Of a stretch of DNA of 64,000 nucleotides, positions 2,158-24,994 are shown piece by piece (position 1 is the first letter of the stretch; every line of letters begins with the position of its first letter). The notes under the pieces are model-generated. The model saw only the letters and a program-made list of their open reading frames with translations, had not been told where the DNA came from and did no database searches. A program made the translations under genes and the position numbers. The DNA is from a virus. The stretch is taken from positions 1 through 64,000 of the IMG/VR virus record IMGVR_UViG_3300026488_000027; one strand, written 5' to 3'.

Positions 2158-2200
2158 GACATCATCCCTCCCGAAAAAAGATTTTATTGATTAGAAAAAC

Positions 2201-2710
2201 TTAGATTACTAAAGAAAAACCAGAATCAGTTTTCTTCCACAGATTCTGGTTCTCAGTTGCAAGATAAAAATTATTGTGAAGAAATTTCTTATTTGAACAT
2301 CTTTCGTCATACCTTCCTGTTTTTACATAATCAACAACATCAAGTAAATATTGATAGTGTCTTTTTACATAATCAAAATCAAATCCGGTGAATAAAACAA
2401 ATTTTACGTCAGGAAATCTATTTTTTATTGACAGAATAAGGTTATAAATAAAAAGAACTCTTTTTTCATTATAAAGTGGTTCTCCACCAAGTAAGTGAAC
2501 TTCTTTGACAAGCTCATGAGACAGTATATTTGACAATCTTTCAACAACACTATTTACATCCTTTTCATAATCAGAAATATAGTTCCACAATTCCTTGTTA
2601 TGACAATTTTTACATTTGTGCTGGCATCCAGTAAAATAAAGTTCTACTGCAAATACATCTTCATTAATAGCATAAGGAGACACCTGTCCAACAATAACCG
2701 AGTCTTTCAT
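2201..2710 (-). CDS. nrdG: Anaerobic ribonucleotide reductase activating protein NrdG
   Basis: Radical-SAM activase that installs the glycyl radical on NrdD using S-adenosylmethionine and a 4Fe-4S cluster. The cluster motif CxxxCxxC is visible as Cys29, Cys33 and Cys36 (GCQHKCKNCHN), followed by a LLGGEPL stretch that matches the radical-SAM GGEP motif. Length 169 aa is normal for NrdG. The start has a GGAGG site seven bases upstream. It lies 43 bp upstream of nrdD in the same leftward operon, the expected partner arrangement. Confidence 0.93.
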   Translation of the reverse strand: MKDSVIVGQVSPYAINEDVFAVELYFTGCQHKCKNCHNKELWNYISDYEKDVNSVVERLSNILSHELVKEVHLLGGEPLYNEKRVLFIYNLILSIKNRFPDVKFVLFTGFDFDYVKRHYQYLLDVVDYVKTGRYDERCSNKKFLHNNFYLATENQNLWKKTDSGFSLVI

Positions 2711-2728
2711 CTTAATCCTCCAGCAAGG

Positions 2729-3022
2729 TCATTTTATTAATGAAACTCTAAAACCTTTTCCACGAAGCATGTTAGTAAGCAATTCGGCTGCTTCTAAAGT
2801 CAAAAAAGGTATGTGAACATAAATTACACACTTCTTTCCTCTCTTGGTATTATGTATATTTAAGAACAAAGTATCAATATCACTTTCAGTAAATTCATCA
2901 AAAGTAAAACACAAGGTAGCACCATCAAAAACATCACCAAAAACTTCAGTTATGCCAGAAATACAATCTAAACAGCTTAATATTTCAGTCATTATTTCTT
3001 CTGCTGTAGATATCTTCTTCAT
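2729..3022 (-). CDS. Hypothetical protein, 97 aa
   Basis: No family recognised. A mixed alpha/beta protein with an acidic middle (FDEFTESDIDTLF) and a C-terminal half with alternating hydrophobic strands and a helix (VIYVHIPFLTLEAAELL). It overlaps the end of the upstream zinc-ribbon gene by 38 bp if the first ATG is used. A start at the ATG at 2992 would leave almost no overlap, but neither start has a strong Shine-Dalgarno, so the N terminus is uncertain. It sits between the zinc-ribbon gene and nrdG in the leftward operon. Confidence 0.65.
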   Translation of the reverse strand: MKKISTAEEIMTEILSCLDCISGITEVFGDVFDGATLCFTFDEFTESDIDTLFLNIHNTKRGKKCVIYVHIPFLTLEAAELLTNMLRGKGFRVSLIK

Positions 3023-3143
3023 CCGTCTTTGTTTTATCCTTCATTTTCAAAACCTTTTCATAGAAACAAGTTGCACAAACTATATTTCCATCTGCTAAGA
3101 TAAAACCACTGCTTAATGAACATTCACACAAATAACATTTCAT
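2985..3143 (-). CDS. Small zinc-ribbon protein, 52 aa
   Basis: Two CxxC knuckles are visible, CYLC at residues 3-6 and CATC in the middle, so it probably binds one zinc ion. The frame is open further upstream to 3170, but GGAGG lies six bases before the ATG at 3143, which gives MKCYLCEC as the N terminus. The tail is charged (KDKTKTDEED). Function unknown; small zinc ribbons are common among phage regulators and adaptors. It overlaps the genes on both sides. Confidence 0.7.
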   Translation of the reverse strand: MKCYLCECSLSSGFILADGNIVCATCFYEKVLKMKDKTKTDEEDIYSRRNND

Positions 3144-3478
3144 AGCAATCCTCCGTTTTCGGTTAAACAAGGTGCAATACCCACAATTTCTTCTAAATTA
3201 AGAACTATTCTGAAACCAGAATTTCTACTTGAAAACGGAAATACTGGTTCTATGTGAAATTGAACCTGTGGTTCATTCATTTCTGAATCAATAAATCCTG
3301 TATTCATAAGATAACTCGAACAAAGAAATGGATTTTCAAGAACTATGAATTTATCTGACACACTATAATCAACAAGCTTGCCTATAACAGCTTTGAAACC
3401 ATCCTTCAATATAATTTGAACATCTGTTCCATGCAACTTTTCAAGATCTTTCATAAAATACAAAACTCCATCATTCAT
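3140..3478 (-). CDS. Hypothetical protein, 112 aa
   Basis: No family recognised. The first half, with DVQIILKDGFKAVIGKLVDY followed by KFIVLEN, has the alternating strand pattern of a small beta-barrel and recalls Sm/LSm-like proteins, but this is only a resemblance. The start has GGAGG five bases upstream. Its end overlaps the start of the zinc-ribbon gene by 4 bp, suggesting translational coupling, and thyX ends 9 bp upstream. Confidence 0.65.
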   Translation of the reverse strand: MNDGVLYFMKDLEKLHGTDVQIILKDGFKAVIGKLVDYSVSDKFIVLENPFLCSSYLMNTGFIDSEMNEPQVQFHIEPVFPFSSRNSGFRIVLNLEEIVGIAPCLTENGGLL

Positions 3479-3487
3479 TCTAACCTC

Positions 3488-4123
3488 CTATTTTACAGTC
3501 TCAAAATATGCATCAAAAATAAACTTATATTCTTCGGGAATTGCTTCATACATCTTTCTTGCAAGTTCTCTTATTTCCCAATGTGCAGCTTTGTCTAATC
3601 TTAATCTAAAGAAATTAAAAAGACTTCTTGCATTGATAGTCATAACTAATTCAGTCTTCCAACATTCAGGCAAAAAGTATTTCAAATCATCTTGACACAT
3701 ACCGAATTCTTTCATTTTCTTCATTTCCATAATCAAATTAAATACAGAATATCTTAGTGAATTCTTCTGTGAATCATCAAAATGTTCTGGAACTACAATA
3801 AATTTGTCCACATCCTGCATAGAACTTATCTGGTCAATGGCTCTGTTAAGGGTATATCTTGTGGACTTTACTGAATAGGATGCTATTCTATGTCTCACAA
3901 GCTCCTGCAACATCAACCTTGAACAACCTTCAATATGGAAGGTAAAATACAAATGTTCAAATACAGAATGATGACCTCTTTTCACCAGAGACTTTAGAAA
4001 TTCCTTATCAGCTAATCCAATAGAATCAAAATTACTGTCACTTCTACTTAAAGATTCATGACAAGTTCTCGCAGCCAAAACAACCAAGTAAAGACTTGAA
4101 TGTGAAAGAAGTCTTACCTTCAT
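3488..4123 (-). CDS. thyX: FAD-dependent thymidylate synthase ThyX
   Basis: Converts dUMP to dTMP using methylene-tetrahydrofolate, FAD and NADPH. The family signature RHR-x7-S is present at residues 77-87 (RHRIASYSVKS) and is followed by TRYT. The start at 4123 gives MKVRLLSHSS, the usual ThyX N terminus, with AGGAG eight bases upstream; a longer GTG start at 4159 has no such support. Length 211 aa is normal. It sits with nrdD/nrdG and dut, so this phage makes its own thymidylate. Confidence 0.93.
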   Translation of the reverse strand: MKVRLLSHSSLYLVVLAARTCHESLSRSDSNFDSIGLADKEFLKSLVKRGHHSVFEHLYFTFHIEGCSRLMLQELVRHRIASYSVKSTRYTLNRAIDQISSMQDVDKFIVVPEHFDDSQKNSLRYSVFNLIMEMKKMKEFGMCQDDLKYFLPECWKTELVMTINARSLFNFFRLRLDKAAHWEIRELARKMYEAIPEEYKFIFDAYFETVK

Positions 4124-7665: not shown

Positions 7666-9471
7666 TTAACATTGAACTGAAGAAACTGTTGAAATACCAT
7701 TTTCTTTTCTAACAGATATAATGCAATCAAACCTATCAGCAAATTCTGGAGAATGATCAATTACAAAAACTTGATTTTTTGTTGCAAGTTCACTAAGTAG
7801 TTGAAATACTTTATTTTTTCTTTCAAGATCAAGATTTCTAAGCGGTTCATCAAAGAAAAAGACACCTATATTCTTTCCTATAACATTTACCGCAAGATCA
7901 TGCAAGGTCAAAGCAAGAGCTATTCTGGCAACCTGCTTTTCTCCCGAAGATAAATTCTTAAATGAAAACTTATTTCTTCGCCTCTTGAAAGAAAATTCTA
8001 TCTTTGTATCATCTATGAAAACTTCAACGGTATAGTCAACACCAAGGTATTTTAAATAATGATTCATTCTATCTGCAATAAGAGACATTATATTGTGAAC
8101 TAACTTCCTCTTTAATTCAGGAAAACCATCTTTCCAAAACTGATAAATTTGTAGTTGTTTCTCAAAATCTGCTTTTGCTTCGTTCAGACTGCTTATCTTA
8201 GCAAGAACTGCATTTAGCTTTTCCTTTCTTTCTTCTTCAAGTTTACGATAAGGATTTTCTTCTGAAGTGATTGTAACTATTCTTTCAGACAAATCCTTTA
8301 TTTTAGCTCGCAACAAAGAAATTTCATCCTTTATTCTTTCCTGTTTTAATTTAAGTCTAAGTTTTTCGTGCTCAATGCTGGTAACCTTTTCTACAATGAG
8401 CTTCAACTGTGCTATTGATGATTTGATCTTATCTCTTTCATCTATTAATTTCTCCATTTCTTCTGATAATTTTTCCATCTCATTAGCAATTTCAGCACGC
8501 CTTTCTTTCAATTCAGAAGCAAGTTCTTGATTTTTTAGATTAGAACCGCACAGAGGACATCTCTTTTTCTTATTTACAAACTTTAAATGTTCACCATACT
8601 TATGATAATCTGAATTAAGAACCTCATACTGAGCTTTTAATTCTTCAAGTTTTTTATTCACTTTATCAAGATTTCTTTCATGAACACTTATTCTGTATTC
8701 AACAGTTGCAACATCCATATCTGCCAATTCTTTTTCAAGCTTTTGCATCTTTTGCTTAAGTGTTTCAGCTTCTTCCCTCAGTTTATCTATCTTATCAAAT
8801 AAACTTCTCTTTTCCTTTTCAATGTTAGCTATAACGGCCTTTCTTTCATGTTCCCACTCAACTATCTTTTCAGCATAGCTCTTTTCAAGCTCTTTGGCTC
8901 TTCCTACAAATTGTGCTATTTTCACTTCAACATCTCTAATGTTAGATTCTATTGTTTTAATCTTACCTGAAACTCTCTTTAAACATCTGTCAAACAATGA
9001 CAAATTAAACAATGTTGCAAGGAAATTCAGTCTCTGTGAAGGAGACATATCAAAGATAGAATTCCAATCTGATCCAACAAACACACAAGCAAAAAAGGTT
9101 TTTACATCACAACCAATAAATCTATTGATTATTTCTTGTCTCTGTGTTTTAGTCAAGTTTTCAGATGCACCGCTCACAAACAAATCTGATACAGTTCTTT
9201 TTACTTCAAATGGTTTGTCTCTTTCAAGAAAGAGATGAATTTCATAATCATCTTCACCTAATCTTATACATTCAGCAGAAGTTAATCCAGATGGAGAACG
9301 ACCAAACAAACCCACTGCAACAGCTTCCAGCAATGAAGTCTTTCCTGATCCTATACTACCACCAGCATCAAAGTTTTCACCTTTTACTAAAAACAATCCT
9401 TTGGTCTTTGGAATATCTATTTCAGCATCTCCAAAAGACTTGAAGTTTTTTACTTTCAACTTTCTAACCAT
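7666..9471 (-). CDS. sbcC: SbcC/Rad50-type recombination ATPase (T4 gp46-like)
   Basis: ABC-type ATPase that works with the Mre11-like nuclease encoded next to it to process DNA ends. Walker A is GSIGSGKTS at residues 38-46, the zinc hook CPLC is at 305-308 between two long coiled coils, the ABC signature LSSGEKQ is near residue 503, Walker B FFFDEP near 536, and an H-loop-like VFVIDHSP follows. 601 aa, short for bacterial SbcC but normal for phage homologues because the coiled coils are short. 3 bp separate it from the mre11-like gene. Confidence 0.93.
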   Translation of the reverse strand: MVRKLKVKNFKSFGDAEIDIPKTKGLFLVKGENFDAGGSIGSGKTSLLEAVAVGLFGRSPSGLTSAECIRLGEDDYEIHLFLERDKPFEVKRTVSDLFVSGASENLTKTQRQEIINRFIGCDVKTFFACVFVGSDWNSIFDMSPSQRLNFLATLFNLSLFDRCLKRVSGKIKTIESNIRDVEVKIAQFVGRAKELEKSYAEKIVEWEHERKAVIANIEKEKRSLFDKIDKLREEAETLKQKMQKLEKELADMDVATVEYRISVHERNLDKVNKKLEELKAQYEVLNSDYHKYGEHLKFVNKKKRCPLCGSNLKNQELASELKERRAEIANEMEKLSEEMEKLIDERDKIKSSIAQLKLIVEKVTSIEHEKLRLKLKQERIKDEISLLRAKIKDLSERIVTITSEENPYRKLEEERKEKLNAVLAKISSLNEAKADFEKQLQIYQFWKDGFPELKRKLVHNIMSLIADRMNHYLKYLGVDYTVEVFIDDTKIEFSFKRRRNKFSFKNLSSGEKQVARIALALTLHDLAVNVIGKNIGVFFFDEPLRNLDLERKNKVFQLLSELATKNQVFVIDHSPEFADRFDCIISVRKENGISTVSSVQC

Positions 9472-9474
9472 GCC

Positions 9475-10518
9475 TTATCTCCTGCAAACTCTAATCAATT
9501 CAAGACCAACTGAAATAATTTCATCTTTGTTTTCTGGTTTTTTAGAAGCTACATATTCTTGTAACATTTGTTCAAGATCAAATAATCTGTTTACTTCAAG
9601 AACCGATGATGCTTCATCAAATTCTATTTCCTCATCAATAAACAGTTTGTCAACATTCTTTATTTTGTCTCTAACAATTTCTTCAACATAAGAAGCACTT
9701 AATCCTTTTGGAATATTAATCATCAAATTAACTGGATTCTGAGGAAACAAATCAGAAATTTCTGTTATAGTGTTAACAAGCTTGTTTCTTGTATTAACAA
9801 TTCGTCTTCTAATGGTGATATAAACAGGCAATTCCGGAAGTCTGTCAATAAAATCAATCTTTTTTACTTTCCCATTATTGAACAACAAAATTCCATGGAA
9901 TAATCTTTCTGATTCAAAGAAAGAATCTCTAAAATCTCGCTGAAAAACACTTCCAACATGGAAATACTGATCATTGTGAGAAGAAAATTGATGAATGTGT
10001 CCAGCAAAAGCAAATCTAACATTATTAACATTCAAAATATCAATGACATTGCTTTCATCAGAATAAAAATTTCTTGAAAATGGCAAAAGTTGGTTATGAC
10101 AAAAAACAATTGAATTTTCTTTGTTCAAAGTAAGCTCATTTAAAACTTTTCTAAATTCAGTATAATCTCTACGATATGCAATGAAGATAAGATTTGAACT
10201 TCTGGTCTCTATTACTTCTCTATCAGTAACTCTGACCGTTATTCTGTTAAGAAATGGTGCTGTAATTGAATCATGAGAAATATCATGATTTCCAAGAATG
10301 AAAACCTTTTCTGGCACATTCAAGTTGAAAACAAATTCGTCTACAAGTTCATACAAAACATTAGGAATTCTATCTTTACTTTCAAACAAATCTCCAAGAA
10401 ATACAAACAACTGAGGTTTTAATTCATTCACTACTTTCACAATTTCATTCAAAACAAGTTTACAACGATCAAGGTAGCTCTCATGTAAGTGAAGATCTCC
10501 TACTATGGCTATCTTCAT
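9475..10518 (-). CDS. sbcD: SbcD/Mre11-type nuclease (T4 gp47-like)
   Basis: Calcineurin-like phosphoesterase nuclease, partner of the adjacent SbcC-like ATPase. Metal-binding motifs in order: GDLHLHE at residues 7-13, FLGDLFESKD, ILGNHDIS, CHNQLLP and GHIHQFS. The start at 10518 (MKIAIVGDLH) has GGGAG eight bases upstream, and its Shine-Dalgarno sits within the end of the recombinase gene. 347 aa. In T4 the equivalent pair is needed for recombination-dependent replication and host DNA breakdown. Confidence 0.93.
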   Translation of the reverse strand: MKIAIVGDLHLHESYLDRCKLVLNEIVKVVNELKPQLFVFLGDLFESKDRIPNVLYELVDEFVFNLNVPEKVFILGNHDISHDSITAPFLNRITVRVTDREVIETRSSNLIFIAYRRDYTEFRKVLNELTLNKENSIVFCHNQLLPFSRNFYSDESNVIDILNVNNVRFAFAGHIHQFSSHNDQYFHVGSVFQRDFRDSFFESERLFHGILLFNNGKVKKIDFIDRLPELPVYITIRRRIVNTRNKLVNTITEISDLFPQNPVNLMINIPKGLSASYVEEIVRDKIKNVDKLFIDEEIEFDEASSVLEVNRLFDLEQMLQEYVASKKPENKDEIISVGLELIRVCRR

Positions 10519-10523
10519 ACTTT

Positions 10524-11525
10524 CTACTCCCACAAAATGAATGAACTTGGACGATTAGTTTTTGATTCTTCAATTATATCATTCCAAACCTTTTCAACTT
10601 CTTTCCTCAAATCATTTATCTTTCCAAGCTCTATCACTTTTTCAGCAAGACCACTTGGACCAAGTCCCTTTACATCATTCCAAACCCACCAAGCACCAGA
10701 CTTAGAAATCAAACCACAATCTGAGAGAAACTTTAGGCAAGATCCAACATCATCTATACCACTATCAAAGTAAATTGAAAATGATCCAGATTTAAATGGT
10801 GCAGCAAGTCTGTTCTTCTTTATTGTGAATGTTATGTCTACACCAATAGGAAATTCCTTGTTCTTTATCTTCTTCTTGATTATGCCATCTTTCTTAACAT
10901 AAATATCAACATGTATTGCATGTCTTATTCCTCTACCACCAGAATAGGTTTCCTTTCTACCATAAACTCCTATACTTTCTCTCACCTGTGAGATAACAAA
11001 CAGAATCGCATTCTTTTTCTTTAAGACGCTCATGATTCTTTTGGCTGTTTCACTCATCTTCTTTGCTACTTCAGCTCCATAAGAAGAATCTCCTATATCA
11101 GCTTTCAGTCTGTCCTCAGTAAGTAAAGCATCAAGACTATCAACAACATAAAACAAGAAATCTTCTTCCTTCAGATTTTTAAGTCGTGTTATAAAATCTC
11201 CAAAAACATCTTCAAATGAAGAACCCGTGATAAGCTCAAAACCATCATTCTCCATTACTTTTTCATACATGGCTGGATTAAGTTGAGCAAGAAAACTATC
11301 AAGAAAACCACCTTCTACATCATTATAAACTATTTGAGGATTCAATCCTTTCTTAATGGCATAATTCAATGCATGAAACATTCCTTGCATTGCAAGAAAA
11401 GATTTTCCACTTCCCTCTTCTCCGTAAATGTGGTAAAATTTTCCAGGAACATATCCAACATCATACTTGTTAGTTATTGCAAGATTTAGCAATGTTGAAC
11501 CTGTTGTAAAACCATCAAGTGTCAT
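10524..11525 (-). CDS. RecA/UvsX-like recombinase
   Basis: Strand-exchange ATPase. Walker A is GEEGSGKS at residues 35-42, Walker B is FYVVDSLDAL near residue 124, followed by SSYGAEVAKKMSE, then AILFVISQVRE and YSGGRGIRHA, corresponding to the RecA L1/L2 DNA-binding loop region. At 333 aa it lacks the long C-terminal domain of bacterial RecA and resembles T4 UvsX in size. It sits between SbcC/D and the SSB-like gene, a typical phage recombination cassette. UvsX, a RecA variant or a RadA-like core are not separable by eye. Confidence 0.87.
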   Translation of the reverse strand: MTLDGFTTGSTLLNLAITNKYDVGYVPGKFYHIYGEEGSGKSFLAMQGMFHALNYAIKKGLNPQIVYNDVEGGFLDSFLAQLNPAMYEKVMENDGFELITGSSFEDVFGDFITRLKNLKEEDFLFYVVDSLDALLTEDRLKADIGDSSYGAEVAKKMSETAKRIMSVLKKKNAILFVISQVRESIGVYGRKETYSGGRGIRHAIHVDIYVKKDGIIKKKIKNKEFPIGVDITFTIKKNRLAAPFKSGSFSIYFDSGIDDVGSCLKFLSDCGLISKSGAWWVWNDVKGLGPSGLAEKVIELGKINDLRKEVEKVWNDIIEESKTNRPSSFILWE

Positions 11526-14795: not shown

Positions 14796-14823
14796 TTGAC
14801 TTTTTCGTGAATGGATGTATATT
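14796..14823 (+). promoter_or_regulatory. Rightward promoter for the replication operon
   Basis: TTGACT (14796-14801), 16-bp spacer, TATATT (14818-14823). Transcription would begin near 14830, which argues for the ATG at 14854 rather than 14815 as start of the first gene. Confidence 0.6.
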
Positions 14824-14853
14824 GAAGTTAGGAATATTTCTGTGAGGGAAGGG

Positions 14854-15744
14854 ATGAATGAATTTGGTATAGTCAGAAAGATGATAATGGACTCCCTTGA
14901 AGGAATTACTTTTGAGGAATACAAGAACCTTTGTGGTTTCGGATCATTGATTCTTGAAAACCTTTCTTTGTATGATAAGGATGGATTGGAAAACTTCAAT
15001 GAACTAATTTATGAGTTGCATGATGCCAAGAAGGTTTCATTGACACAACTTAGATATCGTGCAATGCGTCAAAATGTAAACATTACTGTGGCAAAAAATA
15101 GACAATATTATGCAATTTACTTTTTTCTTGTTGACTTTTTGACACACTATTTTAGAAAATGGAAAACCATCTATTTAACTGACAGAACCATTTTCTATCT
15201 CAGGAAAGCATACAGAAGTGAAGTTGTAGATAATTTGTTAAAAGAGCCATTTTTTGATTATTATGAAACTGAAATTAGAATCTTCAGAAGAGCTTTTTAC
15301 AGTCTTGCATTGTATCATGTATTGCTATACAGAATTCTTTTTGTAAAGAATCCTCTGAATAAAGAAATGTTTTGGACTGCACACAGATACATTATGAGAA
15401 AGATTTTGTTTTTTGTTTTCACACAGATAGCTTTAATTTGTGAAACGGAAGAGGAAATGGAAAAGTTTGCATTTTATATTGAAGAGAATCCACACAAGGT
15501 GTTCAGGTTTTATTGTGAAGAATTAAATATAGCTCCTGAAGATGTTTTTGAAGGTCTTAACATTGTTTCGTTCACAGATTTTGGTGCCGGAATAAACTCT
15601 ACAACTGTCAATTTTATCCTTGACAAATGCCAAGATTTAGACTATCTAAGAAAAGAGAACTTGACAAGAAAGGATGCTGAGGAGTTGATAAAAAAACTTT
15701 TTAAGAAGGAATATCACCAAGTTTTGGTTGGGAGTAAATTATGA
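14854..15744 (+). CDS. Hypothetical replication-operon protein, 296 aa
   Basis: First gene of the rightward replication operon, overlapping the helicase gene by ATGA. No family recognised: it is helical, rich in Tyr and Phe, with FYLRKAYRSEVVDNLLKEPF and a C-terminal basic segment RKDAEELIKKLFKKEY. The position directly between the iteron array and the helicase suggests an initiator or helicase loader, but there is no visible motif for either. A GAGGGAAGGG stretch and the promoter position favour the ATG at 14854 over an in-frame ATG at 14815. Confidence 0.7.
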   Translation: MNEFGIVRKMIMDSLEGITFEEYKNLCGFGSLILENLSLYDKDGLENFNELIYELHDAKKVSLTQLRYRAMRQNVNITVAKNRQYYAIYFFLVDFLTHYFRKWKTIYLTDRTIFYLRKAYRSEVVDNLLKEPFFDYYETEIRIFRRAFYSLALYHVLLYRILFVKNPLNKEMFWTAHRYIMRKILFFVFTQIALICETEEEMEKFAFYIEENPHKVFRFYCEELNIAPEDVFEGLNIVSFTDFGAGINSTTVNFILDKCQDLDYLRKENLTRKDAEELIKKLFKKEYHQVLVGSKL

Positions 15745-17219
15745 AAACCAGTGTGAAACTTGAAGACATTATTTACTTTCTTTCATCTTCAAAAGAGAAG
15801 TATGATAAGTGGGTAAAACACATTTTGAATTGCGATCCTATCCGCAAGTATTCCTGGTTGATTAGATTGGTTGGCAGTTTGTTTGAAATATCAGATTTAA
15901 ATAAATTAACTAAAGAAGAAATTGTTTACTGGTCTGAAAAACTGTTTGAAGATGGTAAATTAGATAAATTGAAACTTGAATTTGTGAAGTCTGTTTGTGA
16001 TAGATTTCCTGAAAATGTAACACCAGTTATGATTGAATCTTTAATTGAAAGTTTTGTATTGAGAAACATTATAGACAAATTTTACGATGATGTTATAACA
16101 CAGGATTTAATTACTTCTGAATCGGTTTTAAATTATCTATGGAGAACATCATCAATTATCAAAGAATTTAACAAATACGAAGTTGATGATGAAAATATTG
16201 AAGAAATACTTGATTCTGGAAGTTTCGAAGTAGGTGGAAAGATAGGAATAGATCTGCTTGATGATTATTTGACAGGATATCCAAAATCTGGTTATACGAT
16301 AGTTGCTGGAAAGACAGGAATAGGAAAGACTTATTTCCTGTTAAATTCTTTTATTGAAAGCTTAAAAAATGGTTATTCTGCACTTTTCATTTCACCTGAA
16401 ATGAGTTTTAGAGCTATAATCAACAGAACAGCTTTGCTGACTACAGGATTCAAACCTACATTTTTGAGAAACAAAAGTTTTTACATTGTGGATGAATTAC
16501 CTATTCCTCATGAACCTATTGAAATCAATAACGATGAACGAAAAAATTTTCAAGAGTTGAAAAAAGAATTTATAAACGAATGGTATGAAAGGCACCATTT
16601 GAAAGATAGATTTGTGTGCGCTGATGTAAGTGGAAATTTGATTTCCTTTCATACAATTGAGTCAGCAATTATAGACTTTATGGAAAAGTATGGGAAGGTT
16701 GATATTATATTTATTGATGCTCCAGAGATGTTGAGTATAAAGTGGGCGAAAAATGAATTTGATGAAATTCAGCAGAAAAGTTTGTTTTTCAATAAGATAG
16801 CGATTGAATATGACATTGCTGTTGTTGTGTCATGGCAACTGAAAAAAGACACATATAAAAAGAAATGTAATCTATCAATCAGTGATATAAAAGGTAGAAA
16901 CGAAATTTCACAGAAGGCATCTTTGATACTTGCTATCATACAAGATTCATCTGAAAAAATGTTTAATTTGCTCCGTGTTGAAACACTAAAAGTAAGACAT
17001 GATGTTCCTATTTATCCACCTCCAATAATTGTCAATTCTGCATTGAAAGATGGTAGATATGTTGATAAAGTTGCCGTGTTTGATAACAACAAGATACAAA
17101 AGTATTTGGAAAGAATTTCTGAACTTGCTAACTTGTATGATACATCAAGTAAGATTGCAAGAGATTATAGAACATTTATAGATGACAGTGGAGATGTTGA
17201 AGATGACTTCCCGTTTTGA
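15741..17219 (+). CDS. DnaB-like replicative helicase
   Basis: RecA-fold hexameric helicase. Walker A is GKTGIGKT at residues 190-197, Walker B-like IIFIDAPE near residue 322, then VVVSWQLKK (motif H3) and a basic DIKGRNEISQKAS stretch that matches the DnaB DNA-binding loop and Arg-finger region. The N-terminal 160 residues are helical and not clearly the DnaB-N domain. 492 aa. ATGA overlap with the gene before, and the primase starts inside its last codons, so helicase and primase are made together. Confidence 0.87.
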   Translation: MKTSVKLEDIIYFLSSSKEKYDKWVKHILNCDPIRKYSWLIRLVGSLFEISDLNKLTKEEIVYWSEKLFEDGKLDKLKLEFVKSVCDRFPENVTPVMIESLIESFVLRNIIDKFYDDVITQDLITSESVLNYLWRTSSIIKEFNKYEVDDENIEEILDSGSFEVGGKIGIDLLDDYLTGYPKSGYTIVAGKTGIGKTYFLLNSFIESLKNGYSALFISPEMSFRAIINRTALLTTGFKPTFLRNKSFYIVDELPIPHEPIEINNDERKNFQELKKEFINEWYERHHLKDRFVCADVSGNLISFHTIESAIIDFMEKYGKVDIIFIDAPEMLSIKWAKNEFDEIQQKSLFFNKIAIEYDIAVVVSWQLKKDTYKKKCNLSISDIKGRNEISQKASLILAIIQDSSEKMFNLLRVETLKVRHDVPIYPPPIIVNSALKDGRYVDKVAVFDNNKIQKYLERISELANLYDTSSKIARDYRTFIDDSGDVEDDFPF

Positions 17220-18174
17220 TGTAAAAGCTTTTTTGCTTGATCATAACATAAGATTTGTGTCAAGAGGAAAGAATGTTGGAAAAGAAGATGTAAATATAAA
17301 ATGTCCTAATTGTGATGACCCTTCCTTTCACCTTGGTATTTACAAAGAAACAGGAATCTTTCATTGCTGGAGATGTGATTTTAGTGGTAACTTTATAACA
17401 TTAATTCAAAAACTTCTTGGTGTTCCATATTACAAAGCAAAAAAGATAGCTGTAAGTTACAGTTATTCCACAGGTATTGAAGAAACTGAAAATAATCAGA
17501 AAAACAATGAAGTAGTCTTTCCAGATAATTCATTTCTCATTCTTGATGCACTTGAAGATGATGAAATTGAATCTTACAGACTTAAAGCTATTTTGTATCT
17601 GAAGAGCAGATTTGTCAATCCTTACAATAAGATGTTATGGATGTTTACACCGAAAACAAATGATAACTATTCTTGTCTTATCATAATTCCAGTTTTCTTT
17701 AATGGTGAAATTGTTACTTGGATTGGAAGAAGATATATTGACAAAGATCCAAGATATGTAAATTGTCCAAAAGACAAATGTATTTTAACTGTAAAAGAAG
17801 TTCTTTACAACTATGATTCTTATACTGAAGATGATTTTGTTTTTATAACGGAAGGTATATTTGATGCTCTTAGGTTTGGAAGATTTGGTTTAGCTTCATT
17901 TGGCAAGATTTTGGGTGAGAAACAACTTGAATTGCTGTATATCAAAAGACCGAGAAAGATTTTTTATGTTCCAGATAGAGATGTTTCACAGGAAGAAGTG
18001 AAAGTGAATTTTAATCAACTAAAACTTATCACGGAAACCGTTATGTTGTGGCCACCTACAAAATATAAGGATGTAGGTGAAATGAAAAAATCTGAAGTAT
18101 TGCAGTGGCTAAGAGAAGAATTATCCGAAGAAGATTTTGAAAAGATTTTTAACGAATTTCTATCAAATGCTTGA
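17203..18174 (+). CDS. DnaG-type primase
   Basis: Makes RNA primers on the lagging strand. An N-terminal zinc-binding domain has Cys34, Cys37, Cys55 and Cys58 (CPNC...HCWRC), and a TOPRIM core follows with FVFITEGIFDALRF (catalytic Glu) near residue 215 and YVPDRDVSQE for the Asp pair. At 323 aa it lacks the C-terminal helicase-interaction domain of bacterial DnaG. The ATG at 17203 is chosen because GGAG lies nine bases upstream; two earlier in-frame ATGs have no site. Overlaps the helicase gene by 17 bp. Confidence 0.88.
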   Translation: MTSRFDVKAFLLDHNIRFVSRGKNVGKEDVNIKCPNCDDPSFHLGIYKETGIFHCWRCDFSGNFITLIQKLLGVPYYKAKKIAVSYSYSTGIEETENNQKNNEVVFPDNSFLILDALEDDEIESYRLKAILYLKSRFVNPYNKMLWMFTPKTNDNYSCLIIIPVFFNGEIVTWIGRRYIDKDPRYVNCPKDKCILTVKEVLYNYDSYTEDDFVFITEGIFDALRFGRFGLASFGKILGEKQLELLYIKRPRKIFYVPDRDVSQEEVKVNFNQLKLITETVMLWPPTKYKDVGEMKKSEVLQWLREELSEEDFEKIFNEFLSNA

Positions 18175-18198
18175 CAAACTATCAAAAAAGTTTATATT
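18171..18198 (+). promoter_or_regulatory. Internal promoter in the replication operon
   Basis: TTGACA at 18171-18176 overlaps the primase stop codon; TATATT lies at 18193-18198 after a 16-bp spacer. It would drive the gene at 18219 and the polymerase. Confidence 0.65.
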
Positions 18199-18218
18199 TA
18201 TACACACTGGAGGATGTG

Positions 18219-18509
18219 ATGATTGATGATAGAATACTAAAATACTTCAAGAATGTTGCTAACAAACTTCAAATTGTTCTGTCTAAGGAATACAGTAAGA
18301 AGAAGAAAAGTCTTTCTGTTTATGCGACCAAAGATGATTTGTATCATGATTTGATCATGTATTACTTGGAATATGGTGATGAAGGAAAAGCAGAGAGTAA
18401 AGTTATTCAAAAATATCTTGAATTATTAAAAAGTATTTCGGTTGAAAGAAGTTGGGGTGAAGAAAAAGCTCTTGAAGCATTTATCTATGGTGAGAAAAGT
18501 GAAGATTGA
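18219..18509 (+). CDS. Hypothetical protein, 96 aa
   Basis: The ATG at 18219 has GGAGG five bases upstream and lies after an internal promoter, so an earlier in-frame start at 18171 is unlikely. Helical and lysine-rich (SKEYSKKKKSLSVYATKDDLYHD). No family recognised. It sits between primase and polymerase, so a replication role is possible, and its end overlaps the next gene by 23 bp. Confidence 0.6.
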   Translation: MIDDRILKYFKNVANKLQIVLSKEYSKKKKSLSVYATKDDLYHDLIMYYLEYGDEGKAESKVIQKYLELLKSISVERSWGEEKALEAFIYGEKSED

Positions 18510-19002
18510 TAATCTACGAATTACACCAAGATTTCTGACAAAAGTTTTGATAAGTATTCCTTTTTTCTGTCAAACAGGAATTGGCCCAACAAAACTTAAA
18601 TATTTTTTAGATGTTGTAAATTCTTTAAATGATTATCTGGAGGAACTTTTTTATGATTTGCAGCCAGATATGATTTATGGTTGTCCTGATAGAAATGGTC
18701 TCTTCTTTTATTCAAATGATTTAGTCTATGTAGTCTGTGATACACTCTATGTTTTTGATTTTTTCTATCACGAGGCTTATATCAACTATAAAATAGAAAG
18801 ACCCATTTTTACAAGTTTGAATATCCCACAACAGACATTCTATAATACTTTTGATCTTGTTGGAGATAAGATGATAGGACTTGACAAACCTCGCATCAGA
18901 GATATTATGTATTGTGATAAAGTAAAAGATTTTTGTTTGCTGTTAGGAGAAGTTCTTTATAATAAGAATATCGGGAGGTTAGAGAATGTCGATCTGCAGT
19001 AA
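18487..19002 (+). CDS. Hypothetical protein, 171 aa
   Basis: No family recognised. Begins with a basic segment (MVRKVKIDNLRITPRFL) and continues with many aromatic residues (YDLQPDMIYG, LYVFDFFYHEAYINY). The ATG at 18487 has no good Shine-Dalgarno and may rely on coupling with the preceding gene, which it overlaps by 23 bp; an ATG at 18442 and a GTG at 18490 are alternatives. Its end overlaps the polymerase gene by 17 bp. Confidence 0.55.
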   Translation: MVRKVKIDNLRITPRFLTKVLISIPFFCQTGIGPTKLKYFLDVVNSLNDYLEELFYDLQPDMIYGCPDRNGLFFYSNDLVYVVCDTLYVFDFFYHEAYINYKIERPIFTSLNIPQQTFYNTFDLVGDKMIGLDKPRIRDIMYCDKVKDFCLLLGEVLYNKNIGRLENVDLQ

Positions 19003-21502
19003 ATGTCCTGTGTGTAATGAAAATAGACAGAAAGTAGATTTTGATGGTAGTTGTGAAGAGTCTGGAATTTATATAGTTGGGCAGAATCCAGGTGCACGGG
19101 AAGTAGAGCAAGGAAAACCTTTTGTTGGTAGGTCTGGAACATTACTGTCCACCATGCTCCACGCAGCTGGTATAGACAGAAAAACCGTTAGAATTGGTAA
19201 TATAGTAAAATGTTTCTTTCCTCCAGGAACAGAAATAAAAAAAGATATTGTGAATGTATGCAAGCAATATGTTCTTGATGATATAAAAAAACACGAACCC
19301 AAAGTAATTATCACTCTGGGTGAAAGAGCATATTTTGGTATCACAGGAAAAGACAATTTTAGTTCACATAGATTTGTTCCAACACCTTATCCTGAACTTG
19401 GTTGTTGGATAGTTCCTTTATATCATCCAAGATTTCTTATGGAAAATAGAAGTCTTGGTTTGAAACATATGATGATAAAAATGATGAAACATGCAAAGTA
19501 TCTTACTACTGTTCCAGTCCCTCAAGTTGATAGACCTGAAGTAGAAATCTTGACGAATTTTGATGATATAGTTAAAGCTATAAGATATTTTAGAAATCAA
19601 AAGTTTGCTGCTTTTGATTTTGAAACTTCTTCACTCTATTCTCACTTTGATATTTCTTACATTGCTACATGTGCTATATCTGATGGAAAACGAACTGTAG
19701 CTTTTCCTGTTGAAAATTATTTTAACGAGAAACAGACAAAACAAATAATTAGTGAATTCATTGAATTTATACATGACAATAATGTTTCAAAACTTGTATT
19801 CAATATGTCCTTTGAAAATTATTGGATTCTTTCAAGAATGAATACTTCTTTTGAAAGAAATGACAATTTTCATGATGTTATGCTTTTATCTTATATGATT
19901 TATCCAAGAGATGGACTTTTTGGTCTAAAAGAGTTGTCAAGGGTTTGGTTAGGTGCTGATGAAACTTATGCTATAGATGTCAAGGATGTTTATTCTATGT
20001 TAAAAGAAAATCCTGAAAGTATTTATGATCTAATGATATATAACGGAATAGATGCTTACTATACATATCACATCTTTGATAGAATAGCAAATTTTGTGAA
20101 AGAAATGAGACAAGCTCTCAGAAAGAACAATCTTGACTTTGAATATAGATTTGGTTTTACGGCTGAAGAAATTTCAAATATCATAAAGTTGTTGAAGTAT
20201 TATAAAATTTCTTTCAAGTATCTTCCCATAACAGTTTCAAAAACACAATTTAATGGATGTATTCCTAACATAGAGTTTATAGATGATCTTGAATTAAGAC
20301 TAAAGAATGAACTGCACAAAGAGCTTGAAAAGATTTATTCTGATGAAAGAGTTCCTGAAAGCACAAAGAATGTTATAAAATCCTTTGGCGTTGAATGTGG
20401 AGAAAAACTTGCTCGTATTCTTGGTTTTGAAAAGGAAAATGTTTCAAAAGAAGAAAAATCTATCAAGAAAATGATTTTTGATATAAGATCATCTAAACAG
20501 CTTGCTGAATTTTTCATAAAGAATGGTTATGAACTGCCAAAAACAAGTAAAGGAAATTATTCTGTAAATGAAAGTGTTTTGAAAAATCTTGCTGAAAAGG
20601 ATAAGTTTGCCAAAAGAATTCTTACTGTGCGTGGAATAGATAAAAAACTGTCTGCTTATGTTAATACATTTAGAAAGTGGATTTTTCCAGATGGTAAGTT
20701 TCATCCTTCATACAGAATAGTATCTGAAGGAACTGCAAGACCTCTTGCAAACAAAATTAATATTCAGCAGTTTCCAAAAAGAAAAGGTAAAGAAATGAGA
20801 CAGGTGTTAAAAGCGCCTGAAGGCTATATCATTCTTGATTTTGATTATTCTGCTCTTGAAGTGAGAGTGCTTGCAATGTTATCAAGAGATCAAAAACTTG
20901 TTGAATATATATTAAATGGTATTGATTTTCACTTAGAGTGGAGTAAAAGAATTTTTGGTGAAAAATTGGCTAAGGAGAATAGAAACTTGGTTAAAAATCA
21001 GTTTGTTTTTCCTTTGTTTTATGGTGCAGGTGTTAAAACAGTATCTAATGGACTTGGCATACCAGAAGATAAAGCTGTAAAGTTAATTGATGAATTCTGG
21101 AATGAATTTAGTGGTGTAAAATTGTGGCAGGAGAAGATGTTTGCTGAATACAATAGAAATGGATGTGTTTCAAACTATTTTGGTAGAAGACGATATGCAC
21201 CTGTTAGCTGGAATGTAATTGTGAACTATCCTATACAGTCAACAGGTGTGGAATTTACCATTTATGCATGGAACAAGCTTGTTGAAAAAGGTTATTGGGT
21301 AGCAGCAGAAATACATGATGAGCTTGTTGTTTATGTAAAAGATGATGAGAAATCAATCAGACAGGGAATAAGGGATATTTATGAAGCTATGGTTAAACAA
21401 CCATGGAAGATTCTTGAAGTTGTTCCTTTGTCAATAGAAGGAAAAATAGGTTATGATTGGTATAATATGAAGGAAATAAATCTTGAAGAATACTTAAGCT
21501 AA
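18986..21502 (+). CDS. Fusion of family 4-type uracil-DNA glycosylase and family A DNA polymerase
   Basis: 838 aa with three domains. Residues 1-170: uracil-DNA glycosylase, with VGQNPGAREVEQGKPFVGRSG at 31-51, LYHPRFL near 150, and four cysteines (Cys4, Cys7, Cys76, Cys92) at the spacing of the family 4 iron-sulfur cluster. From about 205: a 3'-5' exonuclease, with AFDFETSS holding the DxE pair. C-terminal half: polymerase palm and fingers, with motif A LDFDYSALEVR near 615, a motif B region NQFVFPLFYGAG, and motif C AEIHDELVVY near 776. No 5'-nuclease domain. GGGAGG precedes the start. The phage replicase, apparently able to act on uracil in its own template or product. Confidence 0.92.
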   Translation: MSICSKCPVCNENRQKVDFDGSCEESGIYIVGQNPGAREVEQGKPFVGRSGTLLSTMLHAAGIDRKTVRIGNIVKCFFPPGTEIKKDIVNVCKQYVLDDIKKHEPKVIITLGERAYFGITGKDNFSSHRFVPTPYPELGCWIVPLYHPRFLMENRSLGLKHMMIKMMKHAKYLTTVPVPQVDRPEVEILTNFDDIVKAIRYFRNQKFAAFDFETSSLYSHFDISYIATCAISDGKRTVAFPVENYFNEKQTKQIISEFIEFIHDNNVSKLVFNMSFENYWILSRMNTSFERNDNFHDVMLLSYMIYPRDGLFGLKELSRVWLGADETYAIDVKDVYSMLKENPESIYDLMIYNGIDAYYTYHIFDRIANFVKEMRQALRKNNLDFEYRFGFTAEEISNIIKLLKYYKISFKYLPITVSKTQFNGCIPNIEFIDDLELRLKNELHKELEKIYSDERVPESTKNVIKSFGVECGEKLARILGFEKENVSKEEKSIKKMIFDIRSSKQLAEFFIKNGYELPKTSKGNYSVNESVLKNLAEKDKFAKRILTVRGIDKKLSAYVNTFRKWIFPDGKFHPSYRIVSEGTARPLANKINIQQFPKRKGKEMRQVLKAPEGYIILDFDYSALEVRVLAMLSRDQKLVEYILNGIDFHLEWSKRIFGEKLAKENRNLVKNQFVFPLFYGAGVKTVSNGLGIPEDKAVKLIDEFWNEFSGVKLWQEKMFAEYNRNGCVSNYFGRRRYAPVSWNVIVNYPIQSTGVEFTIYAWNKLVEKGYWVAAEIHDELVVYVKDDEKSIRQGIRDIYEAMVKQPWKILEVVPLSIEGKIGYDWYNMKEINLEEYLS

Positions 21503-21512
21503 GAGGTGAAAT

Positions 21513-21590
21513 ATGAATAAGGTATCAGTTTTAGTAAGCAATTTCGTTGAAACGACAACATTAACAACAAAGGACCTTCTGAAACTGTAA
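21513..21590 (+). pseudogene. 25-codon ORF with good RBS, probably a gene cut off by the IscB element
   Basis: AAGAGGTG lies correctly before ATG 21513, ten bases after the polymerase stop. The product, MNKVSVLVSNFVETTTLTTK plus five residues, ends at TAA 21588-21590 inside the left arm of the hairpin at the element's edge. Either a truncated gene whose remainder was lost on insertion or a true small peptide. Confidence 0.4.
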
Positions 21591-21593
21591 CAT

Positions 21594-21896
21594 TTTAAAA
21601 TGTTTAGTTACAGTTTCAGCGGGTCTGAGGCAGAGGTGGTCCTGATGAAGGATAAGCTGAACTTGCCGAATAGGAAGGCAAGAGGTGAAGAGGAGAGAAT
21701 TTTTCTCTCCCACCACCTACGTCCTATGGTTGCCCGTGAGGGCAGGCACCCTGGGGTGGAGCACCAGCTCCAGGCTCTGCTGGTGGTGGGGGACGAAACC
21801 CAGCCTGAGATGGTGTTGGTGAACACCCCTACCACTATCAGAGACCATGGGACATTGCCGAGGTGCAGCATAACCCCTTTATGGGAGGTAGCTTAA
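21594..21896 (+). ncRNA. Omega RNA of IscB (guide leader plus scaffold)
   Basis: About 290 bases directly upstream of iscB are strongly GC-rich in a low-GC genome and full of short stems: CTTGCC/GGCAAG, GGAGAGA/TCTCTCC, GCCC/GGGC, GGAGC/GCTCC, GGTGTT/AACACC and a final AACCCC-type stem next to the iscB Shine-Dalgarno. Known IscB systems have the omega RNA scaffold in exactly this place, with the guide at its 5' end. Here the guide would lie within about 21,594-21,619, depending on where the scaffold begins. Both strands also carry spurious open frames across it. RNA size and guide boundary are inferred. Confidence 0.8.
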
Positions 21897-23090
21897 ATGC
21901 TACATAATCAAAAAATGAAAGTTTTTGTGGTTGATGCTGAGGGAAAACCACTTCTACCTACCACACCTGCAAGAGCAAGAATACTGCTGAAAAAAGGAAA
22001 AGCAAAAGTTTACAGAATGATACCATTCACTATCCAACTAAACAGAGTGGTTAAAAATCCTGTTGGTGAATTTACTGCTGCAGTTGATGATGGTTCAAAA
22101 TATCTTGGTATAGCTGTTAAGGGGAAAAATGAAATTGTTTTCACTGCTAATGTAAAACTTAGACAAGATGTAAGCAGAAAAGTTAAGCAGAGAGCCATGT
22201 ATCGCAGGAATAGAAGGAGGAGACTTAGGCATAGACCAGCTCGGTTTATGAATAGAAAGAGAAGCAAAGACTGGTTGCCACCATCAATCAGATATAGAAA
22301 GGAAGTTGTTTTGAGGGTTCTAAATGATTTGAGTAAGTTTTTAAATATCACAAAAGTTATAATTGAGCAAGTTAAATTTGATGTTTCTTCCCTTGTGGCT
22401 GGTAGGAGGTTGAAAGGCAAGGAATATCAACGAAAAAGATATGAAGGCAGAAACTTCAGAGAAAAAGTCTTGATAAGAGACAATTATACTTGCCAAATTT
22501 GTGGTAATAAGAAAAATCTTGAAGTTCATCACATAATCCCAAGAAGTAAAGGAGGAACAAATGTTGTAGAAAATGGAATTACATTGTGTAAGAATTGTCA
22601 TAAAGCTGTTCATGAATGTAAAATAAAACTGACCGCTAACATACTATCAACGAAGCATGCTTCTGTTGCTCAACAAGGCAAATGGTGGTTATTTAGAATA
22701 TTAAAAGAACAATTTAAAAATGTTGAAATAACGTTTGGTTATATCACCAAGAAGAATAGAGAGAAACTTGGACTTCCAAAGGATCACTATACTGATGCTT
22801 GTGCAATATTAGAATGTAACAATATCATTTCGCCTGTTTATTTAATTATTCCACGCAGAAGAAGACCAGAAATAAATAATTCAACAAAGAAACATAATGA
22901 ATACAAAGGATTTAGACATTTTGATATTGTAGTTGCTTATCACAAAACTAAGGGTAAGATAATTGGTTGTGTAAGAAGTCTAAAGAAAAGTGGTTTGGCT
23001 TTGAGAACGAAATTTTCAGATAACTTTGTTGTTGGATATACAAAAAGTAAACTACTTTGGAGACCAAAGGGGTTAGTTTATGTGGTATAA
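21897..23090 (+). CDS. iscB: IscB, RNA-guided HNH/RuvC nuclease
   Basis: Ancestor-type relative of Cas9 that cuts DNA guided by an omega RNA. The N-terminal PLMP-like domain reads PLLPTTPARARILLKKGKAK at residues 18-37. RuvC-I is AVDDGSKYLGIA with Asp64; an Arg-rich bridge helix spans about 94-122; RuvC-II has Glu158 (IIEQVKFD); the HNH domain spans about 199-239 with CQIC, HHIIPRSKGG (His211/His212) and CKNC zinc knuckles; RuvC-III is HYTDACAI with Asp300. A basic C-terminal domain follows. 397 aa, within the family range. All catalytic residues are present, so it is probably active. GGGAGG, part of the omega RNA end, precedes the ATG. Confidence 0.95.
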   Translation: MLHNQKMKVFVVDAEGKPLLPTTPARARILLKKGKAKVYRMIPFTIQLNRVVKNPVGEFTAAVDDGSKYLGIAVKGKNEIVFTANVKLRQDVSRKVKQRAMYRRNRRRRLRHRPARFMNRKRSKDWLPPSIRYRKEVVLRVLNDLSKFLNITKVIIEQVKFDVSSLVAGRRLKGKEYQRKRYEGRNFREKVLIRDNYTCQICGNKKNLEVHHIIPRSKGGTNVVENGITLCKNCHKAVHECKIKLTANILSTKHASVAQQGKWWLFRILKEQFKNVEITFGYITKKNREKLGLPKDHYTDACAILECNNIISPVYLIIPRRRRPEINNSTKKHNEYKGFRHFDIVVAYHKTKGKIIGCVRSLKKSGLALRTKFSDNFVVGYTKSKLLWRPKGLVYVV

Positions 23091-23091
23091 T
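23083..23091 (+). promoter_or_regulatory. Extended -10 promoter at the end of iscB
   Basis: TGGTATAAT, an extended -10 element, overlaps the iscB stop codon. No good -35 is present. It would provide a transcript for the phosphoesterase gene at 23153. Confidence 0.45.
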
Positions 23092-23152
23092 ATAATATTG
23101 CAATATGTTAGAAAATGTTTTAAATTTTAAAACTGTTTGAAAGGAGGAATAG

Positions 23153-24082: not shown

Positions 24083-24264
24083 AGAGGAAAAGCAGATATT
24101 GGTTAATTACTGGTGAAATATTCAGAAAAGGAAAGAAGTCTTATTTTATTAATGTGGTAAATCTAAAAAGTGGTAATATAGTGGAATGGAAAGAATTTTC
24201 AAACTATGGAAGCTGGAAACAACAACAAGTCTATCTACGAAACAAATATAGAACTGCTAATTAG
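24079..24264 (+). CDS. Small basic protein, 61 aa
   Basis: Starts within the stop of the phosphoesterase gene (ATGA), so translation is coupled. Basic and aromatic, with YWLITGEIFRKGKKSYFINV and a tail KQQQVYLRNKYR; strand-rich. No family recognised. Its last 8 bp overlap the end of the convergent leftward late block. Confidence 0.6.
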   Translation: MKRKSRYWLITGEIFRKGKKSYFINVVNLKSGNIVEWKEFSNYGSWKQQQVYLRNKYRTAN

Positions 24265-24994
24265 CAAATTCAAAAATTGCTGTCTGGCCAGCATAAACAT
24301 AGTCTAATTCTTTAACTAATGGATTTAGTTTTATGTGTTTTCTATTTACTGGGATTACTAAAAGTGCATAGCTTCCCCAACATACAAATTGAAGTCTTTG
24401 TCCTTGATGCACAGGTTGATTTTCATCTACAAAGTCAAGTATAGAATTTACTTCCCTATCAGCAATTGAGCAAATAACACAATCAAAGTTTTTTATTGGA
24501 TTGTATAATTCAATAACTTTTCTTTCATTTTTAAATGTGAAGTGTAAATTTTCTGGCTTTGGTTTTTTATTTGTGATTATATCATATTCTGCTGGAATCA
24601 TTGAAAGGTTTTCAGTAACAGTTGGTTCTAATTCTTTTATTGAACGGACAATTCCTTTTATTGGACTTCTACCGAGATGAACACTAAACGCAGTTAAAAA
24701 GATAGCACATGCATAGCACTCGCATTTCATTTCTGAATCTAAAACCTCGTTTATCGTGTATGATTTTCCTTTCACATTGAGAACATCTTCGTCTGGATTA
24801 TATCTTCCTATATGAACAACAATTCCATCAAATGGAGCAAAGATATATTTACTAATTTGCCATTTTGTTCTTAAAGGCATTCTATTGAAGTATAGTTCAA
24901 CAAATTCTCTTGGTGTTGCTTTTGATACCTTCTTGAAGTCTTCTGTTTGTTGCCATTCTTCCATTGTGTGCGATTTAAATAATCTAATCATCAT
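24257..24994 (-). CDS. Phosphatidylserine decarboxylase-like pyruvoyl enzyme
   Basis: Follows the family pattern along most of its 245 aa: FAPFDGIVVHIG (like SPVDG) with Asp56; AIFLTAFSVHLGRSPIKG at 97-114 with His106; FKNERKVIELYNP; DCVICSIADREVNSI; and a C-terminal CWGSYALLVIP at 205-215 with Ser208. In true decarboxylases the Asp-His-Ser triad drives self-cleavage before the Ser, turning it into the pyruvoyl cofactor; all three are present, though the usual LGST reads CWGSY. No membrane segment. Its ATG overlaps the stop of the pentein gene, so the two are made together. Substrate unknown: phospholipid, or an amino-acid-like product of the pentein (inference). Confidence 0.75.
   Translation of the reverse strand: MMIRLFKSHTMEEWQQTEDFKKVSKATPREFVELYFNRMPLRTKWQISKYIFAPFDGIVVHIGRYNPDEDVLNVKGKSYTINEVLDSEMKCECYACAIFLTAFSVHLGRSPIKGIVRSIKELEPTVTENLSMIPAEYDIITNKKPKPENLHFTFKNERKVIELYNPIKNFDCVICSIADREVNSILDFVDENQPVHQGQRLQFVCWGSYALLVIPVNRKHIKLNPLVKELDYVYAGQTAIFEFAN

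What the first reader, a model, noticed from the sequence alone, without database searches (positions are those of the whole stretch)
21594..23090. Complete IscB-omega RNA locus inside a phage replication operon
IscB keeps all RuvC and HNH catalytic residues (Asp64, Glu158, His211/212, Asp300), and a GC-rich structured leader of omega RNA type lies directly before it. No transposase is present. Sitting just after the phage DNA polymerase gene, it could serve the phage, for example to cut competing phages or to home, rather than act only as an IS passenger.
Basis: partly seen in the sequence, partly recalled or inferred. Interest (0 to 1): 0.85.

Follow-up and report, generated by a model that had tools for sequence, protein, structure and literature searches.

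The report
Phage IscB–omega RNA homing-like element
A bacterial virus carries a complete, intact copy of an RNA-guided DNA cutter (IscB with its guide RNA) slotted precisely between two of its replication genes; the layout predicts that it cuts the same spot in related phages that lack it, which would make it work like the classic phage homing endonucleases but aimed by RNA.

Summary
Confirmed, with corrected boundaries. ORF 21897-23090 is an intact 397-aa IscB: RRXRR and HNH domains, conserved RuvC/HNH catalytic residues, and a predicted fold matching solved IscB-omega RNA complexes. The leader is a genuine omega RNA. It hits Rfam HEARO below the gathering score, but covariation is decisive: 27 of 39 stem pairs show compensatory changes, and a nexus-type pseudoknot pairs in 40 of 40 cells. 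The closest relative (81% aa) sits in an unrelated place, a Desulfobacterales chromosome, so the unit (about 21573-23143) is mobile. No IS200/605 TnpA lies in the record. Four empty/filled pairs (three in Staphylococcus phages, one for the 81% relative) show one geometry: the guide is the 5' flank, and the next host bases fit an NNRR TAM, in three of four within a Shine-Dalgarno-like site. The window fits the same scheme (CAACAAAG|GAGGAATAGATG). Best reading: a standalone IscB element with homing geometry, addressed to its own empty site in related phages. IscB in viral genomes is already published. New here are the precise anatomy, the shared geometry and cultivable test pairs. The window's own empty site and any activity are inferred.

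The parts
14815..21502 (+). Replication operon upstream: ORF 14815, DnaB-like helicase 15741-17219, primase 17182-18174, small ORFs, UDG-exonuclease-family A DNA polymerase fusion 18986-21502
21513..21590 (+). Small ORF (25 aa) whose last codons lie in the element; predicted original form is 22 aa ending ...TTKEE* directly before the ATG of the downstream gene
   Evidence: sequence; the original form is a reconstruction (inference)
21553..21572 (+). Predicted guide (CGACAACATTAACAACAAAG), phage flank immediately 5' of the element
   Evidence: geometry of four empty/filled pairs; guide position relative to adaptor hairpin, PMC9640706
21573..21625 (+). Guide-adaptor hairpin (GACC...GGTC base, 13-bp perfect stem 21579-21591/21607-21619); its first base is the element's 5' end
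21622..21896 (+). Omega RNA scaffold (HEARO match 21662-21873); pseudoknot 21762-21765 with 21862-21865
21897..23090 (+). IscB, 397 aa; D64, E157, H211/H212, H297, D300 conserved; dN/dS to nearest relative about 0.06 (dS near saturation)
23091..23143 (+). Inferred 3' tail of the element ending ...CTGTTTGAAAG, which rebuilds the first half of the downstream Shine-Dalgarno
   Evidence: weak match to L096 tail; homology is solid only to about 23084
23144..23149 (+). Predicted TAM GAGGAA (NNRR), second half of the Shine-Dalgarno of the next gene
   Evidence: NNRR from PMC9640706
23153..24082 (+). Downstream metallophosphoesterase (phrog_221), still intact

Best explanation
A standalone IscB-omega RNA mobile element (about 1.57 kb, 21573-23143), inserted between the DNA polymerase/small-ORF and metallophosphoesterase genes of a tailed phage. 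The omega RNA takes its 5' guide from the flanking phage sequence (about 21553-21572). IscB loaded with it should cut double-stranded DNA where that sequence is followed by an NNRR TAM. In the resident genome the element separates guide-matching sequence and TAM (GACC follows the guide; its third and fourth bases are not purines), so the carrier is protected. In a co-infecting relative without the element the joined site ...CAACAAAG|GAGGAATAG would be cut, and recombinational repair from the carrier would copy the element in, i.e. RNA-guided homing, with removal of element-free competitors as a by-product. Shown: IscB, omega RNA fold, mobility, exact geometry in four other insertions. Inferred: the window's empty site, cleavage, homing.
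For: IscB identity and fold; purifying selection; omega RNA covariation including pseudoknot. A relative with 81% aa / 78% nt identity sits between mobA and a CNNM-like gene in a Desulfobacterales MAG, with homology stopping at both ends; related genomes have the two genes adjacent without the element, L203 being the closest. One phage contig carries three divergent copies; the two compared in detail have different flanks. Staphylococcus phages with and without the element: VL10/CIFT vs Romulus, JDF86 vs phiSA_BS1 (flanks over 99% identical), Golestan vs PSU4: guide equals left flank, and the next empty-site bases GTGA, GAGA, GGGA and (L203) GAGG all fit NNRR. The adaptor hairpin starts at the first element base in the window, L096, JDF86 and Golestan. 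Joining the window flanks gives an ORF ending TAG immediately before the next ATG with GGAGG in place. The phage encodes RecA-like, SbcCD-like, RusA-like and (weak hit) gp32-like proteins for repair. Homing endonuclease genes of other families are found near phage polymerase genes (PMC10448857).
Against: No empty-site relative of the window phage was found, so its target is a reconstruction. The 3' end of the element rests on weak similarity. No transcription or cleavage data. Homing is demonstrated for none of the compared phages. The HEARO score is below Rfam's gathering threshold.
Confidence: 0.72

Rival explanations
1. A passenger of the IS200/IS605 (ISC) kind that lost TnpA and is moved in trans by a transposase elsewhere; IscB keeps it in place by cutting excised sites, with no phage role.
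For: IscB is historically tied to IS200/605 elements; the MAG carrying the 81% relative has two Y1 TnpA genes elsewhere; the element occurs in chromosomes and phages.
Against: No TnpA in the phage record or in the five clade-mate viral records searched; few IscB loci are near TnpA at all (PMC9755519); the phage insertions compared lie between genes with a replacement Shine-Dalgarno or recoded gene start.
Confidence: 0.17
2. Phage-domesticated weapon: the guide addresses other phages or the host, and homing is not the point.
For: A phage intron endonuclease does mediate interference competition (PMC11620839).
Against: In all four pairs with a known empty site the guide equals the insertion-site flank, not a foreign sequence; no other strong guide match in the window genome, none in viral contigs.
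Confidence: 0.08
3. A decaying remnant without activity.
For: Only one copy in the record; no activity data.
Against: Intact ORF, dN/dS about 0.06, all catalytic residues, intact adaptor hairpin, stems and pseudoknot.
Confidence: 0.03

Closest known systems
IscB / HEARO OMEGA nucleases (OgeuIscB, HfmIscB, MG35-1)
   Same: RRXRR, RuvC and HNH with catalytic residues; upstream omega RNA with adaptor hairpin and nexus-type pseudoknot; NNRR TAM geometry; usually no TnpA; often viral (over 16% of fragments, PMC9755519)
   Different: 397 aa versus about 495 in OgeuIscB; adaptor hairpin sequence free to vary, HEARO score below gathering; sits in a phage replication operon
Silviavirus and Baoshanvirus IscB elements (annotated HNH endonuclease, hypothetical protein or HEARO)
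   Same: Presence/absence between genes in phage genomes; guide equals 5' flank; NNRR follows in empty relatives
   Different: 31-33% aa identity to the window protein; different insertion sites
Freestanding phage homing endonuclease genes
   Same: Neighbourhood of DNA polymerase, mobile, predicted to cut the allele lacking the element
   Different: Specificity comes from an RNA taken from the flank, not from protein-DNA contacts
TnpB of IS200/IS605
   Same: RNA-guided cutting of element-free sites acts as a gene drive in plasmids (PMC11870625)
   Different: TnpB has RuvC only, guide at the RNA 3' end and an upstream TAM (own knowledge)

Membership tests
IscB | RRXRR plus split RuvC with inserted HNH | tested here: met
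IscB | RuvC and HNH catalytic residues | tested here: met
   D64, E157, H211/H212, H297, D300 conserved
IscB | Fold of IscB-omega RNA complexes | tested here: met
   AlphaFold pLDDT 76.8; best ten PDB hits are IscB/IsrB, E 1e-25 to 1e-17
HEARO / omega RNA | Match to Rfam HEARO at gathering score | tested here: not met
   45.8 bits versus 83; clade-mates 36-45 bits. This is a score cut-off, not a structural feature; the full model aligned
HEARO / omega RNA | Conserved stem architecture | tested here: met
   27/39 pairs with double changes
HEARO / omega RNA | Nexus pseudoknot | tested here: met
   40/40 pairs, 0 of 20000 shuffles
HEARO / omega RNA | Guide directly 5' of the adaptor hairpin, equal to the element's flank | tested here: met
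   in four related insertions; for the window by analogy
HEARO / omega RNA | RNA-guided DNA cleavage with NNRR TAM | not testable with these tools
   empty sites fit NNRR; no assay
ISC (IS200/IS605) transposon | Y1 transposase TnpA in the element | tested here: not met
Homing endonuclease element | Presence/absence at the same site in related genomes | tested here: inconclusive
   met for Staphylococcus phage relatives; no relative available for the window phage
Homing endonuclease element | Cleavage of the empty allele and copying into it | not testable with these tools
   inference only

The most novel reading that the evidence does not exclude
IscB elements in phages are RNA-guided homing elements: they take their guide from the left flank and insert between guide sequence and an NNRR TAM that is often the downstream gene's Shine-Dalgarno. 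Their 3' end supplies a replacement Shine-Dalgarno, and they spread among co-infecting phages without any transposase.
Probability: 0.5. Interest if true: 0.72.

Novelty: new member of a known kind. Interest (0 to 1): 0.52.

Why it matters
The natural role of IscB, the ancestor of Cas9, is not settled in the papers I could read. Phages offer a clean test: matched pairs with and without the element exist in sequenced, cultivable Staphylococcus phages, and the window shows the same geometry in an unrelated phage. If confirmed, phages carry programmable homing endonucleases that retarget simply by moving.

Tried and rejected
Single-protein scans for relatives of the polymerase, metallophosphoesterase, portal and helicase gave no phage holding this locus. 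A 19-mer across the predicted empty junction found only two contigs with the same unrelated sequence, treated as chance. Guide plus NNRR: none. I first took the scaffold motif near 21620 as the element's 5' end and the upstream hairpin as host sequence; the empty sites and folding showed that the hairpin is the guide-adaptor hairpin and belongs to the element. A shared insertion site with Cetobacterium plasmid p3 (IscB next to a metallophosphoesterase) was rejected: the two proteins are not similar. A 4-bp target-site duplication was considered and dropped: the Staphylococcus copies do not show it consistently, so the NNAG before the TAM is better read as the element's own 3' end.

Full report
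Observation. The ORF at 21897-23090 encodes 397 aa with RRXRR (3.2e-54) and HNH (1.5e-13) domains. Solved IscB proteins are the best sequence matches (HfmIscB 9k2z, 2.3e-75 with the clade profile), and the AlphaFold model (pLDDT 76.8) retrieves IscB-omega RNA complexes first. Against its nearest relative dN is 0.12 and dS about 2 (near saturation), so the protein is under purifying selection.

Omega RNA. Rfam reports nothing at gathering level, but HEARO aligns over its whole length to 21662-21873 at 45.8 bits. Several clade-mates score 36-45 bits, also below the cut-off of 83. The leader folds 5.6 standard deviations better than shuffles. In an alignment of ten relatives, 94.7% of cells pair against 77.2% in shuffles and at most 51.5% in slid versions, and 27 of 39 pairs change on both sides. 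A pseudoknot between the hairpin loop (window 21762-21765) and the segment 21862-21865 pairs in 40 of 40 cells through several pair types, shuffled mean 27.9, 0 of 20000 reaching it. This corresponds to the nexus pseudoknot of OgeuIscB (PMC9640706).

Boundaries. The closest relative, L096 (81% aa), lies in a Desulfobacterales MAG between a mobA-like and a CNNM-like gene; nucleotide similarity of 78% stops at both ends. Relatives have these two genes adjacent without IscB; L203 gives the clearest empty site. Empty: GAAGATATGAG|GAGGTT; filled: GATATGAG|GACCTTCT...TGAGGAGGTTAAAA. In the window the corresponding left junction is CAACAAAG|GACCTTCT. The first bases of the element form the base of a hairpin (GACC with GGTC, then a 13-bp perfect stem in the window) directly 5' of the scaffold, which is the guide-adaptor hairpin. 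Its sequence varies freely between relatives while pairing is kept; combined p = 3e-4 over ten loci, strongest in the window and L185 and weak singly elsewhere.

Independent insertions. Staphylococcus phages give three more pairs: VL10 and CIFT phages versus Romulus, JDF86 versus phiSA_BS1, and Golestan versus PSU4. In each the 5' flank of the element equals the sequence that, in the empty relative, is followed by GTGA, GAGA or GGGA; with GAGG for L203 all four fit the NNRR TAM reported for OgeuIscB (chance about 1 in 256). In JDF86, Golestan and L096 the break is inside a purine-rich Shine-Dalgarno-like stretch and the element's right end supplies a replacement; in VL10 it is inside the start of the next gene and the right side carries a copy with a changed but synonymous serine codon (AGT to TCG), which would block recutting. 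Related elements (81-92% identical) sit at three different places in these phages, so they move. A clade-mate phage contig (G006) has three divergent copies, with two compared copies sharing a sharp left boundary.

The window in this light. Leaving out 21573-23143 in a script, to show the empty site, joins the small ORF (MNKVSVLVSNFVETTTLTTK) to GAG GAA TAG, immediately followed by the ATG of the metallophosphoesterase, with GGAGG as its Shine-Dalgarno. This natural operon junction supports the boundaries, but it is a reconstruction: no relative with the empty site was found.

Mechanism. Predicted guide about 21553-21572, TAM GAGG(AA). The resident copy is protected because GACC follows the guide. 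The record lacks TnpA and encodes RecA-like, SbcC/SbcD-like, RusA-like and weakly gp32-like proteins, so break repair by recombination is plausible. Homing endonuclease genes of other families also cluster near phage DNA polymerase genes (PMC10448857), and cutting by such an enzyme can suppress a co-infecting phage (PMC11620839). TnpB acts as a gene drive in plasmids (PMC11870625). Homing is thus the best-supported mechanism; a trans-mobilised IS passenger is the main rival.

Novelty. IscB in viral genomes and without TnpA is published (PMC9755519), so this is a new member of a known kind. The shared insertion geometry, and its presence in cultivable phage pairs, is what makes it worth following; I did not find it described in the papers searched, which is a limited library.

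Noticed in passing
48440-51091 (-): Terminase large subunit carries an intein with LAGLIDADG domain (Intein_splicing 1.2e-9, LAGLIDADG_3 5.7e-10); the related contig L176 lacks about 0.6-0.7 kb there, an empty site. So the phage holds two different mobile nuclease elements.
   Followed up: partly
18986-21502 (+): Fusion of a uracil-DNA-glycosylase superfamily domain, 3'-5' exonuclease and family A DNA polymerase in one protein.
   Followed up: no
24257-24994 (-): Phage-borne phosphatidylserine decarboxylase-like protein (PF02666, 1.9e-23), next to the replication operon.
   Followed up: no
L007 (VL10) 2170-3800, L199 (CIFT) 860-2500: Silviavirus IscB insertion leaves a target copy at the right side with a synonymous serine codon swap (AGT to TCG) inside the guide-matching stretch, as expected for protection from recutting.
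   Followed up: partly
L182, L185 (G006): Two IscB copies in one phage contig have nearly identical omega RNA scaffolds but unrelated adaptor hairpins; how the hairpin is replaced on moving is unexplained.
   Followed up: partly
7666-11525 (-): SbcC/RecN-like ATPase, calcineurin-like nuclease (SbcD-like) and RecA-like protein side by side, a T4-like recombination set.
   Followed up: no
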